Shown here: one piece after another, positions 4,050 through 60,293 of the stretch
Layout of the letters: every line of letters starts with the position of its first letter
Position numbering within the stretch: the stretch's first letter is position 1
Assembly: GCA_902778625.1 (NCBI GenBank)
Contig: CACYYM010000012.1
Location: forward strand, 1 to 64,000
Direction of reading: 5' to 3'
Source of the DNA: an uncultured Bacteroidales bacterium
GTDB taxonomy: Bacteria > Bacteroidota > Bacteroidia > Bacteroidales > Bacteroidaceae
DNA: 64,000 nucleotides
The notes under the pieces: generated by a model
Database searches by the model: none
What the model saw: the letters and a program-made list of their open reading frames with translations, nothing else
What the model was told of the DNA's origin: nothing
Program-made: the position numbers and the translations under genes

Positions 4050-4137
4050 AAACTTAACGTGTTAAGTTGACCAATTTAACGTGTTAAGTTGACCAACACA
4101 ACACGTTAAATTTGCAAAGACAACGTGTTAAGTTTGG
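4050..4137. repeat. 22-bp phased palindrome array, 4 units
   Basis: Centres are CGTG 4058, CGTG 4080, CACG 4102 and CGTG 4124, exactly 22 bp apart. The best unit is AACTTAACGTGTTAAGTT, with 7-bp complementary arms around CGTG. Unit three is inverted (CACG). It lies between the convergent gltX and rpoD genes. The same architecture recurs at eight other places in the window. Confidence 0.85.
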
Positions 4138-4179
4138 GAAGATGACTGGGGTGGTTTGAAACTCCGGTTGAGATAAAGA

Positions 4180-4212
4180 AAAAGAGAGGCACGATGTGTG
4201 TCTCTCTTTTCT
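4180..4212. terminator. Terminator between convergent gltX and rpoD
   Basis: Stem AAAAGAGAG (4180-4188) pairs with CTCTCTTTT (4202-4210) across a 13-nt loop, with A-rich and T-rich flanks. It is suited to work in both directions. Confidence 0.65.
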
Positions 4213-4233
4213 TGTCCGATTTTGTAGTTTGTC

Positions 4234-5097
4234 TTAGCCAAGGTACGAGCGAAGCAGGCTATTTCTGCTTCCTGCACGAAGCTTGCGGATAGCTTTCTCG
4301 CGGATTTGACGGACACGTTCGCGGGTAAGGCCGAAGGTCTCGCCAATCTCTTCGAGGGTCATCTCTGGTTGGTTGTTGATGCCGAAACTGCGTTCGATAA
4401 TCTGCTTCTCGCGTTCGTTGAGGACACCTAGCGCACGATCGATCTCTGTCGAAAGGCTTTCGCTGACCAGGCCCTTGTCGGCCATCGGCGAATCGGGATT
4501 GGTCATCACGTCCAAGAGGCTGTTCTCCTCGCCTTCGATGAAGGGGGCATCCACGCTGACATGACGGCCGCTTGCACGAAGGGAGTCGCTGATTTTCTCT
4601 GGCAACTCGTTGACCAGTTCCGCCAATTCATCGGCACTTGGCTTGCGCTCGTATTCCTGTTCGAACTTCGTCATTGCCTTCGTGATTTTATTCACGGCAC
4701 TAACCTGATTGAGAGGCAGGCGAACGATACGGCTCTGCTCGGCCAAAGCCTGAAGAATGGTCTGGCGAATCCACCAAACGGCATACGAGATGAACTTGAA
4801 GCCTCGCGTTTCGTCAAACTTCTCTGCAGCCTTAATCAAACCCACATTACCTTCGTTGATAAGGTCTGGCAGAGAAAGTCCCTGGTTTTGGTATTGCTTG
4901 GCAACACTGACAACAAATCGAAGATTGGCACGCACCAGCTTGTCGAGAGCCCTGCGGTCGCCTTTTCGTATCCTTTGGGAAAGTTCAACTTCCTCTTCGA
5001 CGGGGAGCAAAGCCTCACGTCCAATTTCCTGCAGATACTTGTCGAGCGACGCACTATCGCGACTGGTGATGCTCTTTGTGATTTTAAGCTGTCTCAT
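4234..5097 (-). CDS. rpoD: Primary sigma factor, RpoD/sigma-70
   Basis: Housekeeping sigma factor that directs RNA polymerase to promoters. At 287 residues it has the short Bacteroidota form, without region 1.1 or a long spacer. Region 1.2 begins at SASLDKYLQEIG; region 2 includes LRFVVSVAKQYQNQGL and the -10-recognising GFKFISYAVWWIRQ; region 4.2 is the helix-turn-helix LTRERVRQIREKAIRKL near the C-terminus. It is transcribed alone from a TATATTTG promoter at 5131-5138. The TAnnTTTG promoters noted throughout the window are the class this sigma factor is known to read in Bacteroidota. Confidence 0.95.
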   Translation of the reverse strand: MRQLKITKSITSRDSASLDKYLQEIGREALLPVEEEVELSQRIRKGDRRALDKLVRANLRFVVSVAKQYQNQGLSLPDLINEGNVGLIKAAEKFDETRGFKFISYAVWWIRQTILQALAEQSRIVRLPLNQVSAVNKITKAMTKFEQEYERKPSADELAELVNELPEKISDSLRASGRHVSVDAPFIEGEENSLLDVMTNPDSPMADKGLVSESLSTEIDRALGVLNEREKQIIERSFGINNQPEMTLEEIGETFGLTRERVRQIREKAIRKLRAGSRNSLLRSYLG

Positions 5098-5130
5098 ATA
5101 CCTAATATATTATTCCGTAGAATTAGCTCG

Positions 5131-5138
5131 CAAATATA
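5131..5138 (-). promoter_or_regulatory. -7 promoter element of rpoD
   Basis: Minus-strand TATATTTG lies about 34 bp upstream of the rpoD start. Confidence 0.6.
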
Positions 5139-5207
5139 GAACTTTTTAATTAGAAATTGCATGCTTTTATGCTAAAAGATGTGAAAAAGAGGCAAAAACG
5201 CACAAAA

Positions 5208-5235
5208 TTCTTCATTCTTCGTTCTTCATTCCTCA
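5208..5235. repeat. Heptad repeat upstream of lemA promoter
   Basis: Four 7-bp units: TTCTTCA, TTCTTCG, TTCTTCA, TTCCTCA. They lie between the divergent rpoD and lemA promoters. Confidence 0.75.
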
Positions 5236-5244
5236 TTTTTGTTG

Positions 5245-5252
5245 TATCTTTG
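5245..5252 (+). promoter_or_regulatory. -7 promoter element of lemA
   Basis: TATCTTTG lies about 53 bp before the lemA ATG. Confidence 0.65.
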
Positions 5253-5305
5253 CAAAGAATATGACGTAAAGCAAAGCATAAGGTTTAATCTTAAATAAAA
5301 CAATT

Positions 5306-5872
5306 ATGAGTACAGTAGCTATTATCATTATTGCGGTCATCGTACTGCTTGTTCTTTGGATTATTGGCATCTACAACAACCTCGTTGGTCTTCGCAACAA
5401 TCGCGAGAATGCTTTCGCCAACATCGACGTTCAGCTCAAACAGCGTCACGACCTCATTCCGCAGCTCGTAGCAACCGTCAAGGGTTATGCCACTCACGAG
5501 AAAGAAGTGTTCGAAAAGGTGACGGAAGCCCGTACTGCCGCTATGAACGCGACCACCATCAACGACAAGATTGCAGCCGAGAACCAGCTCTCGAACGCTA
5601 TGCTCAACCTCAAGGCCGTTGCAGAGGCTTATCCCGACCTGAAGGCCAACCAGAACTTCATGCAGCTCCAGACCGAAGTGAGCGATATCGAGAACAAGCT
5701 CGCAGCCGTTCGCCGCTTCTTCAACAGCGCAACAAAGGAGCTCAACAATGGCGTCCAGAAGTTCCCCGCAGTCCTCTTCGCAAGCATGTTCGGCTTCCAC
5801 AAAGAGCCCCTCTTCGACGTTGGCGAAGCAGAACGAGCAAACATGGACAAAGCACCTGAGATTAAGTTTTAG
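5306..5872 (+). CDS. lemA: LemA family protein
   Basis: A 188-residue protein with one N-terminal membrane helix (about residues 4-22) followed by the LemA signature YNNLVGLRNN and HDLIPQLVATVKGYATHE, then a helical bundle. The family is widespread; the molecular role is unclear. Next door is an M48 metalloprotease, and LemA beside an M48/HtpX-type protease is a recurring pairing, so a joint role in membrane protein quality control is plausible but inferred. The stop codon TAG (5870-5872) is also the first triplet of a heptad repeat. Confidence 0.9.
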   Translation: MSTVAIIIIAVIVLLVLWIIGIYNNLVGLRNNRENAFANIDVQLKQRHDLIPQLVATVKGYATHEKEVFEKVTEARTAAMNATTINDKIAAENQLSNAMLNLKAVAEAYPDLKANQNFMQLQTEVSDIENKLAAVRRFFNSATKELNNGVQKFPAVLFASMFGFHKEPLFDVGEAERANMDKAPEIKF

Positions 5873-5962
5873 TCCACAGTCCATAGTCCATAGTTAAAAC
5901 TACGCCCTCGAATAGGACGAGACATTTACTATGGACTATGAACTCATAACTATGAACTATAA
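5870..5962. repeat. Two opposed heptad repeat blocks
   Basis: Block one is TAGTCCA, CAGTCCA, TAGTCCA, TAGTTAA (5870-5897) and begins with the lemA stop codon. Block two is ACTATGG, ACTATGA, ACTCATA, ACTATGA, ACTATAA (5928-5962) and ends three bases before the next ATG. The blocks are roughly reverse complements, so the intercistronic RNA could fold into a hairpin. Confidence 0.75.
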
Positions 5963-59159: not shown

Positions 59160-59189
59160 TCTGATGGGTGGTTTTCTATGTTTGCTTTG

Positions 59190-59197
59190 CAAAGATA
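59190..59197 (-). promoter_or_regulatory. -7 promoter element of GPx gene
   Basis: Minus-strand TATCTTTG about 31 bp before the start at 59159. Confidence 0.65.
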
Positions 59198-59670
59198 ATC
59201 AAAAAGAACGACTTTTTGCATGATATTCAATAAATAATGCCTTTCAATGCAAAAAACAACTGTTCTGATGATGAAAAGCAAAGGTTATACATTATCGTGA
59301 GTTCAATGAAATGAATTGTCTAATACTAATTCGTTGAAATCGCGTTAATGAGTGGAACTTGTGACTTTTATTTCTGATGTTTGCAATTTGGTGTGCCATT
59401 TTGGTGCTTTGACAAAATGTAAGCATTTCGGCAGTTTTGCTTACAGGTGAATTTTTCCTGAATGCCTCAGAATTGCTTCTTTTGCCTCCGACCTTGTTTT
59501 TCGACCCCAAAGCAAAAATATGGGCTTAAATCGAAGACAGTTTCTCAACTATCTCTGCCACAGATTGTTAGAAGAACCTCCACGCGACTGCCATTTTATC
59601 CCGATTCATCGTTTTGCTAACTATACATGGCAAAACGGGCCGTTTTAACCCGAAATTGCACACTTTTTGA
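59198..59670. other. AT-rich non-coding stretch
   Basis: No convincing gene. It contains an 8-bp hairpin TGTAAGCA/TGCTTACA (59418-59445) and the 16-bp sequence ATGGGCTTAAATCGAA (59520-59535), which recurs inverted at 51372-51387. Otherwise nothing recognised. It leads into a palindrome array at 59671. Confidence 0.5.
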
Positions 59671-59784
59671 CGTGAAGTTTCCACAAATTTCACACGAGAA
59701 ATTTTCAAACACGACACGTGAACTTTTCAAACTTCACGTGTCGCGTTTGAAAAGACCTCACGTCGCGCCGGCAGAATCGACGTA
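59671..59784. repeat. 22-bp phased palindrome array, 6 units
   Basis: Cores CGTG 59671, CACG 59693, CACG 59715, CGTG 59737, CACG 59759 and CGTA 59781, period 22. The unit AAATTTCACACGAGAAATTT has 7-bp arms around ACACGA, the same arm-core geometry as the AAATCC units at 43082. Arm sequences are otherwise new. Confidence 0.85.
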
Positions 59785-59874
59785 AAAAGTGCTCTTTTTC
59801 GACACTTTTCAGAGTGTGCAATTTCTAACACTTTGACGGCTTTTTATGTATTTTTGCTTACATTATGACAAAAG

Positions 59875-59912
59875 AAGCTCCCACCTTAATGCATGATTAA
59901 GGTGGGAGCTTT
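59875..59912 (-). terminator. Terminator of the small peptide gene
   Basis: A 16-bp stem AAGCTCCCACCTTAAT (59875-59890) pairs with 59896-59911 across a 5-nt loop. On the minus strand it is followed by CTTTTG. It lies 44 bp beyond the stop of the 59956-60066 gene. Confidence 0.75.
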
Positions 59913-59955
59913 ATTGATTCCCCACTGAAGGGGGAGATTCAGATATGGCTTTTCT

Positions 59956-60066
59956 TTACCATTCCTCGTCCCAGACATTGACCTGTTCCTTGGTGCGGGA
60001 CTCGCCGTTTCCTGCGCCGCCATTCACGAGGCCGGCATTGCCTTTAACTTCGCCCACGCTCTGCAT
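59956..60066 (-). CDS. Small peptide with acidic WDEEW tail; true start uncertain
   Basis: From ATG 60066 the peptide is 36 residues (MQSVGEVKGNAGLVNGGAG ... ending NVWDEEW). The frame stays open upstream and reads SPEIIIVQLQHQGLLMQ, which looks like the usual start of small Bacteroidales peptides of this kind. No ATG, GTG or TTG lies between the likely transcription start and that SPEI block. It has its own promoter (60151-60158) and terminator (59875-59912), so it is a real transcription unit. Function unknown; the start codon may be non-standard or lost. Confidence 0.5.
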   Translation of the reverse strand: MQSVGEVKGNAGLVNGGAGNGESRTKEQVNVWDEEW

Positions 60067-60150
60067 CAGCAAACCTTGATGTTGCAGCTGCACAATGATT
60101 ATTTCAGGGCTTAAATAATATAATAATGTATTTAAGATAATTTGGGGCTG

Positions 60151-60158
60151 CAAAGGTA
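60151..60158 (-). promoter_or_regulatory. -7 promoter element of small peptide gene
   Basis: Minus-strand TACCTTTG, followed by GCAGCCCC. It resembles the TACCTTTGCAGCC of topA and tRNA-Gln. Confidence 0.6.
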
Positions 60159-60218
60159 CGAATAAGTGAAAATAATGCAAAAAAAACATTATTTTTTTCA
60201 AGAATAGCAATAATTTGA

Positions 60219-60244
60219 CGAGTTATGTTGCCTAACCTAACACG
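60219..60244. repeat. Two-unit remnant of a 22-bp phased array
   Basis: CGAG at 60219 and CACG at 60241 are 22 bp apart, in TTTGACGAG and CTAACACGTCAAAT. Weak evidence alone. Confidence 0.35.
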
Positions 60245-60293
60245 TCAAATTGCTTTTTATCCACAATGATTTTGCTTTTTGAATTATATATTG

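What the first reader, a model, noticed from the sequence alone, without database searches (positions are those of the whole stretch)
4050..60245. A family of intergenic arrays of short palindromes locked to a 22-bp grid
Seen directly: arrays at 4050-4137, 8521-8622, 14824-14905, 27511-27590, 30831-30930, 43060-43265, 51165-51324, 59671-59784 and a two-unit remnant at 60219. In each, a 4-bp core (mostly CGTG or CACG) recurs exactly every 22 bp. Most cores are flanked by complementary arms: CCG/CGG, TTAA/TTAA, TAAA/TTTA, AAATCC/GGATTT, AAATTTC/GAAATTT. The arm sequence differs from array to array, but period, core and arm complementarity persist, and core orientation can flip within an array. 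All lie outside genes, mostly downstream of them. Twenty-two bp is about two helical turns, so a symmetric protein bound to each unit would sit on one face of the DNA; alternatively the transcribed units form serial tetraloop hairpins. I know of no described element with this design.
Basis: partly seen in the sequence, partly recalled or inferred. Interest (0 to 1): 0.93.

Follow-up and report, generated by a model that had tools for sequence, protein, structure and literature searches.

The report
Evenly spaced 22-bp palindrome arrays
In this uncultured relative of rumen bacteria, rows of imperfect DNA palindromes repeating every 22 letters sit between genes about once every 6,700 letters, and related species keep the 22-letter rhythm while spelling the units differently; the rows are likely docking platforms for an unknown DNA-binding protein that would help organise the chromosome.

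Summary
All nine arrays exist. In 860 kb of the same genome there are 127 such arrays (0 in shuffled sequence), nearly all between genes. Lag 22 is the top period in motif-free autocorrelation here and, by positions, in 80 related loci whose motifs differ. Arrays are evenly spaced: mean interval 6.7 kb, CV 0.44 against 0.73-0.82 for positions drawn from real intergenic gaps (0 of 1000). The spacing ignores arm class and recurs in species G036 with another motif. After gltX, arrays of nine species keep the same register while arms change compensatorily. No G-U excess, no U-tract polarity, no Rfam match to an array and no Y1/RAYT transposase were found. I favour helically phased dimer sites acting as chromosome-organising platforms. 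The protein is unidentified; a cruciform, or a ~3-kb exclusion rule of other origin, remains open. Anatomy is shown, mechanism inferred.

The parts
4049..4136 (.). array, 4 units, between convergent gltX (2441-4039 +) and a sigma-70 family gene (4234-5097 -); TTAA-type arms
8516..8603 (.). array, 4 units, GC class; the first unit is the palindrome CCCTATAGGG without a CACG core, and an on-grid palindrome CCCCCTTAAAGGGG follows at 8604-8625; lies between tyrS plus a tRNA (8375-8445) and topA
14821..14908 (.). array, 4 units, GC class, convergent gap
27505..27592 (.). array, 4 units, GC class, co-directional gap
30848..30913 (.). array, 3 units, GC class; on-grid palindromes with other cores flank it at 30826-30847 and 30914-30935; the mechanical ORF 30880-33249 overlaps it through an early GTG start
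43073..43270 (.). array, 9 units: four ATCC/GGAT-type, one bridging, four TAAA/TTTA-type
51158..51311 (.). array, 7 diverged units still on the 22-bp grid
59662..59793 (.). array, 6 units
60210..60253 (.). two-unit remnant array

Best explanation
The arrays are rows of 22-bp imperfect palindromes lying in the gaps between genes about every 6.7 kb, and they likely work as docking platforms on which an unidentified dimeric DNA-binding protein would line up on one face of the helix and divide the chromosome into short segments. Shown: the grid, the partly symmetric units, the placement between genes and away from short divergent gaps, the even spacing with few neighbours closer than 3 kb, the blindness of that spacing to arm class, and preservation of register at an orthologous place while the sequence changes. 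Inferred: that each unit is a dimer site, that 22 bp (about two helical turns) keeps neighbouring dimers in contact, that half-site sequence drifts together with the protein, and that the platforms act in chromosome organisation (anchors, boundaries or supercoil insulators) rather than on single genes.
For: Grid: lag 22 dominates 464 kb of the genome (2331 positions; lags 19 and 23 none, 20 and 21 at 14 and 61) and is the top lag by positions in 80 named related loci with different motifs (39 loci; lag 7, a separate repeat, in 41; lag 23 in 9, 20 in 3, 19 in 1, 17 and 26 in none). Register: after gltX the first unit starts 9 bp behind the stop codon in the window and in L095-L102 alike; on eight of these nine, 5 of 7 arm pairs changed on both sides, 87.5% of cells paired against 71.3% shuffled, slid controls at most 46.4%. 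Placement: convergent gaps >=100 bp 36 of 43, divergent gaps under 300 bp 3 of 46, co-directional gaps >=100 bp 67 of 140; with an unpenalised gene caller on 464 kb 23 of 26, 2 of 30 and 50 of 75. Spacing: CV 0.44 vs 0.73-0.82, 5% of 117 intervals under 3 kb vs 23-29%, 0 of 1000 draws in each of four pools; stable over thresholds 14-50 (CV 0.44-0.48); convergent gaps with an array keep away from the next array (median 4.92 kb, n=34), those without do not (2.07 kb, n=32; random positions 1.77 kb; p=3e-7). Class-blind: same-class neighbours 6.3 kb (n=61), different-class 5.5 kb (n=56), p=0.16. Second species G036: 55 arrays in 353 kb, CV 0.49 vs 0.79, none of 47 intervals under 2 kb vs 21%, 0 of 1000. 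DNA rather than RNA: no G-U excess, no U-tract polarity.
Against: No binding protein was found; HU-HIG paralogues (PF18291) are numerous here (13) and in G047 (12) and G059 (17), but G025, with 216 pattern hits, has 3 matches and G031, with no array seen in 40 kb, has 7. Free but complementary arms are also what a hairpin or cruciform would show. One protein reading both CCG- and TTA-type half-sites would need loose specificity or paralogues; GC-class arrays lie in slightly GC-richer surroundings (0.534 vs 0.511, p=1e-6), so arm sequence may partly follow local mutation. A hard-core rule of 3-3.5 kb reproduces the CV (32 of 300 draws at or below it at 3 kb, 231-238 of 300 at 3.5 kb), so no upper limit on the interval is proven. 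Core orientation looked biased against transcription in the first sample (161 vs 56 units), less in the larger (167 vs 130 units, 38 vs 26 arrays). In the 80 loci only 24 of 73 arrays are individually palindromic at p<=0.05.
Confidence: 0.45

Rival explanations
1. Each unit works as a base-paired structure (DNA cruciform or single-strand hairpin) with CACG/CGTG as the four-base loop; the arrays buffer supercoiling at gene ends.
For: Arms change compensatorily at an orthologous site and by unit outside the GC class; no strand asymmetry of mismatches; convergent gaps preferred.
Against: A hairpin does not need a strict 22-bp step. In the GC class the arms avoid pairing at distances 4 and 6. Some other species show perfect palindromic centres without a loop, e.g. 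CTTAAG and AAGCGCTT. Symmetry about unit junctions is about as good as about cores (0.591 vs 0.604 in heterogeneous neighbours).
Confidence: 0.17
2. Selfish or recombination-made repeats: tandem units spread by an unknown enzyme or ectopic conversion, and an exclusion rule (target immunity, or deletion between nearby copies) gives the even spacing.
For: Sequences differ between species; a 3-3.5 kb hard-core null reproduces the spacing; arrays avoid genes; adjacent arrays share a 14-mer about as often as distant ones (23% of 117 vs 26% of 1085).
Against: Exclusion shows no significant dependence on sequence class; diverged units stay on grid; register kept in nine species at gltX; no Y1 transposase.
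Confidence: 0.18
3. Gene-end topology elements that work like E. coli BIMEs: gyrase or IHF-like protein sites at transcription-unit ends.
For: Intergenic, gene-end placement; tandem palindromes; BIME-2 bind gyrase and BIME-1 inter-REP DNA binds IHF (PMC2817692, passages).
Against: Only 37 of 73 convergent gaps of any length hold an array, and those without lie as near to another array as random positions do, so not every unit end is marked; the design differs from BIMEs.
Confidence: 0.12
4. Multi-hairpin transcription terminators or 3'-end stabilisers acting in RNA.
For: Gene-end placement; at the gltX site species L103 has a U-tract hairpin instead of an array; separate terminator-like hairpins are rarer where an array is present (13 of 37 convergent gaps vs 11 of 17).
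Against: No G-U excess, no exit U-tract polarity, no Rfam match to an array, core orientation not fixed to transcription; even spacing is unexplained.
Confidence: 0.08

Closest known systems
REP / BIME elements with RAYT (Y1) transposases
   Same: many extragenic palindromic copies, clustered, species-specific sequence, gene-end location
   Different: contiguous 22-bp grid, mostly in one orientation, instead of REPs in alternating orientation with spacers; no Y1_Tnp gene found; register kept between species; even spacing
Plasmid iterons and other helically phased protein-site arrays (recalled, no call)
   Same: about 22-bp direct repeats in helical phase bound by a protein
   Different: some 450 arrays per genome by extrapolation, spread over the chromosome, sequence not conserved between species
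DNA uptake sequences (DUS/USS; recalled, no call)
   Same: about two thousand intergenic units by extrapolation, species dialects, rather even spacing
   Different: tandem arrays on a 22-bp grid; motifs of the species share no obvious short word; uptake not tested
VNTR / microsatellite-type tandem repeats (recalled, no call)
   Same: tandem units differing in number between arrays
   Different: units diverge yet stay on the grid, partly symmetric units, genome-wide family with even spacing

Membership tests
REP/BIME | extragenic palindromic repeats in high copy | tested here: met
   127 arrays, 628 units in 860 kb; 1 array mostly in CDS with a caller penalised for array letters, 7 of 69 at least half in an ORF without the penalty
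REP/BIME | cognate RAYT (Y1_Tnp, PF01797) in the genome | tested here: not met
   0 matches in the own genome (89.5% complete); the control rings in 5 of 14 known genomes
REP/BIME | GTAG or CGTC tag at one end of the palindrome | tested here: not met
   unit consensus has AA-rich and TTTG-like ends with CACG in the centre; tags known from the title and abstract start of PMC3733652
REP/BIME | BIME: regularly spaced REPs in alternating orientation | tested here: not met
   exact cores at 22 bp mostly keep orientation (110 ++ and 129 --, against 24 +- and 36 -+); definition from PMC2817692
REP/BIME | gyrase or IHF binding | not testable with these tools
   needs ChIP or cleavage mapping
intrinsic terminator | hairpin followed by U-tract in the transcript direction | tested here: not met
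   T5 at exit 13 of 69 vs A5 at entry 11 of 69 co-directional arrays
structured RNA | G-U pairs tolerated in stems on the transcribed strand | tested here: not met
   GT 150 vs AC 180 on the transcript strand, 69 arrays
structured RNA | match to a described RNA family | tested here: not met
   only a tRNA in the window at gathering thresholds
phased protein-site array | fixed helical spacing kept across species | tested here: met
   21-bp steps occur
phased protein-site array | cognate binding protein | tested here: inconclusive
   HU-HIG copy number does not separate array-rich from array-poor genomes

The most novel reading that the evidence does not exclude
A sequence-written ruler of the bacterial chromosome: about 450 phased protein platforms, kept at intervals of about 6-7 kb by selection, whose 22-bp geometry is what evolution preserves while the letters of every site are rewritten together from species to species.
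Probability: 0.35. Interest if true: 0.93.

Novelty: categorically new. Interest (0 to 1): 0.82.

Why it matters
Bacterial chromosomes are folded into kilobase-scale segments, but evenly spaced, site-specific anchors written in sequence are not known to me. If the arrays are such anchors, loop or insulator spacing becomes readable from sequence and testable by moving or deleting arrays. Even if the exclusion has another cause, an element that keeps its geometry and place while its sequence turns over is unusual, and it gives a way to find such elements by period rather than by motif.

Tried and rejected
RNA hairpin stems: G-U against A-C mismatch test negative. Terminators: end polarity negative; a first, loose hairpin score was useless because control divergent gaps scored as high (30 of 52); a stricter score gave 22 of 37 convergent gaps with array (13 outside it) and 11 of 17 without; in co-directional gaps with arrays 30 of 67 on the sense and 22 of 67 on the antisense strand. 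RAYT/REP: no Y1_Tnp. HU-HIG as cognate protein: suggestive in G047 and G059, contradicted by G025 and G031. Recombination between like arrays as the cause of spacing: not supported by the class test (the non-significant difference goes its way), not excluded. Core- versus junction-centred palindromes: hardly any difference. Orientation of the core relative to transcription: strong in the first sample, weak in the larger; no clear pattern in the halves of convergent gaps. Literature: searches listed no described element of this design; the library lacks most subscription papers. Papers seen: PMC3733652, PMC5771137, PMC2817692 and PMC12306157 as passages, the others only as search listings. A paper on expanded HU clades in Bacteroidetes is recalled; one search did not return it.

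Rows dropped: samples of G030, G051 and G055 read mostly N and were left out; of 24 genomes from other families 19 were scored there. In one search, 79 of 80 gltX loci were testable. One search kept arrays of at least three units at threshold 26 (73), while one search counted 80 at threshold 25. L099 was left out. Arrays closer than 800 bp were merged before spacing counts in observed and null alike; the first null lacked this merge and was replaced. Gene calls are from a home-made hexamer caller; it penalised ORF letters inside arrays, which lowers the count of arrays in CDS; searches have no such penalty.
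Full report
WHAT IS THERE. The window is contig C12 of a 3.08-Mb, 39-contig assembly, 89.5% complete. The closest gltX genes in named records are from uncultured Bacteroidaceae, Prevotellaceae or Bacteroidales bacteria, several titled rumen or omasum. 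All nine reported arrays are present and are exactly the nine found in the window by a profile scan that gave 69 arrays in 464 kb and none in shuffled sequence at threshold 25. A unit is a contiguous 22 bp: nine bases, a four-base core (CACG on one strand, CGTG on the other), nine bases; AA and TT near the ends of the unit and the core carry most of the information. In 860 kb of this genome there are 127 arrays and 628 units, mostly 3-6 units per array, which extrapolates to about 450 arrays in the assembly.

THE PERIOD. Without using any motif, lag 22 is by far the strongest autocorrelation (2331 positions; 44 and 66 follow; 19 and 23 have none). Steps of 21 bp occur at 34 of 254 array ends. 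In species G036 of the same genus the site is CACGTG every 22 bp, and strong lags of 43 and 65 come from a 21-bp step in an AT-rich symmetric unit; by eye, most of the 26 listed of 50 clusters have one.

OTHER SPECIES. Of 61 genomes searched with the CACG pattern 32 match: 31 of the 37 in the genus (own included) and 1 of 24 from other families; genomes with one or two matches may be chance. Motif-free sampling of 20-140 kb per genome shows 22-bp clusters in 8 of 11 further genus members and in 3 of 19 genomes of other families (one of these three, G042, is not symmetric); another family, G054, has a 23-bp version. Of 80 named loci around gltX, 39 have lag-22 arrays at the stricter threshold, with motifs such as ACACTTAAGTGT, AAGCGCTT, AACAACGGCGTTGTT and TTCCCCCGGTGGGAA. 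Only 24 of 73 arrays are individually more palindromic than column-shuffled versions at p<=0.05; the mean score is 0.637 against 0.552. The period is therefore the more constant property, symmetry the weaker one.

REGISTER IS KEPT WHILE SEQUENCE CHANGES. Downstream of gltX the nine closest species (window, L095-L102) have arrays at the same place: in all nine the first unit begins 9 bp behind the stop codon and the units follow on the grid, although the arms read TTAA, GCCG, GCAG, TCGG or GTAA (read by eye). Autocorrelation alone calls eight arrays in 79 testable loci: seven of L095-L102 (L099 is below the threshold) and the more distant L119. On the first unit of eight of the nine species (L099 left out) 87.5% of cells pair against 71.3% in shuffles (0 of 500), five of seven pairs have a change on both sides, and slid controls stay at or below 46.4%. 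The species are related, so this is not a probability. Within the genome the GC-rich class (49 of 127 arrays) supplies much of the apparent covariation; outside it the three inner pairs still exceed chance (0.56 against 0.40, one unit per array, n=57), while the GC class avoids pairing at distances 4 and 6 from the core. GC-class arrays lie in slightly GC-richer DNA (0.534 vs 0.511).

PLACEMENT AND SPACING. One of 127 arrays is mostly in CDS when ORFs are penalised for array letters; without the penalty 7 of 69 arrays are at least half inside an ORF and 3 of 55 mostly so in G036, commonly through a long upstream start. Arrays lie in 36 of 43 convergent gaps of at least 100 bp, 67 of 140 co-directional gaps of at least 100 bp and 3 of 46 divergent gaps shorter than 300 bp (unpenalised, on 464 kb: 23 of 26, 50 of 75 and 2 of 30); longer divergent gaps hold them in 17 of 26 cases, some of which may hide uncalled genes. 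Gap length is inflated by the arrays themselves, so these fractions overstate the preference. The intervals are even: mean 6.73 kb, CV 0.44, 5% below 3 kb; draws of the same number of positions from the real gaps give CV 0.73-0.82 and 23-29% below 3 kb, never reaching the observed values in 1000 draws for each of four pools. The result does not depend on the detection threshold (CV 0.44-0.48 at thresholds 14-50). Convergent gaps that hold an array keep away from the next one (median 4.92 kb), whereas those without lie about as near to an array (2.07 kb) as random positions do (1.77 kb). G036 repeats the even spacing with its own motif (CV 0.49 vs 0.79). Against over-reading: random placement with a forbidden zone of 3-3.5 kb already gives the observed CV. 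The exclusion does not significantly distinguish GC-class from AT-class arrays (6.3 kb same-class, 5.5 kb different-class, p=0.16), so the arrays behave as one system whatever their arms read.

RNA OR DNA. On the transcript strand of co-directional gaps G-T mismatches are not commoner than A-C (150 vs 180), array ends show no polarity of U-tracts, orientation of the core is only weakly tied to transcription (167 vs 130 units), and Rfam sees only a tRNA in the window. Terminator-like hairpins outside the array are found in 13 of 37 convergent gaps with arrays and 11 of 17 without; in species L103 a U-tract hairpin occupies the gltX site where its relatives have arrays, the best argument for the terminator rival.

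MECHANISM. A strict step of about two helical turns, kept in diverged units and across species, points to proteins contacting one another along one face of DNA; partly symmetric units suggest dimers; even spacing blind to class suggests a chromosome-scale role. This is inference. The protein is unknown. HU-HIG (PF18291) matches number 13 here, 12 in G047 and 17 in G059, two other families in which a 22-bp array with visible symmetry was seen (one array each), but G025 (216 pattern hits) has 3 and G031 (no array seen in 40 kb) has 7.

COMPARISON. The nearest described things are REP/BIME elements; a Y1 transposase, the end tags and the alternating orientation were tested and not met. It may still work like a BIME at gene ends. 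Searches of the held library listed no element of this design, which is weak evidence given the library's gaps.

Noticed in passing
window 2341-2487, 5207-5237, 5870-5960, 8666-8803, 24210-24272, 33238-33264, 40352-40387, 47263-47287: 7-bp tandem repeats (AACTATG, ATTCTTC, TAGTCCA, AATGAAA and others), by eye upstream of start codons; in 860 kb, 24 of 361 gaps have such runs (13 of 72 divergent, 10 of 235 co-directional, 1 of 54 convergent) against 0, 1, 6, 3 and 1 for periods 5, 6, 8, 9, 10. Lag 7 is found in 41 of 80 related loci.
   Followed up: partly
own genome contig C1:47229-47470; L096, L101, L105, L109: A second motif on the same 22-bp grid, TTGCANNTACATGTANNTGCAA-like: TACATGTA occurs 42 times in 860 kb, with 26 pairs at exactly 22 bp and 12 at 44.
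   Followed up: partly
L236-L255 (species G036): Arrays of CACGTG with, by eye, usually one 21-bp AT-rich unit (ATATTTGAAATAT-like) inside, giving lags 43 and 65.
   Followed up: partly
L103, about 20-55 bp after the gltX match end: A U-tract hairpin (AAAAAAGCATCC...GGATGCTTTTTT) at the site where sister species have the array.
   Followed up: no
window 8516-8537, 8604-8625, 30826-30847, 30914-30935: On-grid palindromes with other centres (CTATAG, CTTAAAG, CTTTAG, CTTGAG) cap two GC-class arrays.
   Followed up: no
G000, G047, G059 and genus members: Many HU-HIG (PF18291) matches, up to 19 in one genome (G017).
   Followed up: partly
L091 (G054, another family): A 23-bp-period array CTCACAAGTTTGTCAGTTTTTAC.
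   Followed up: no
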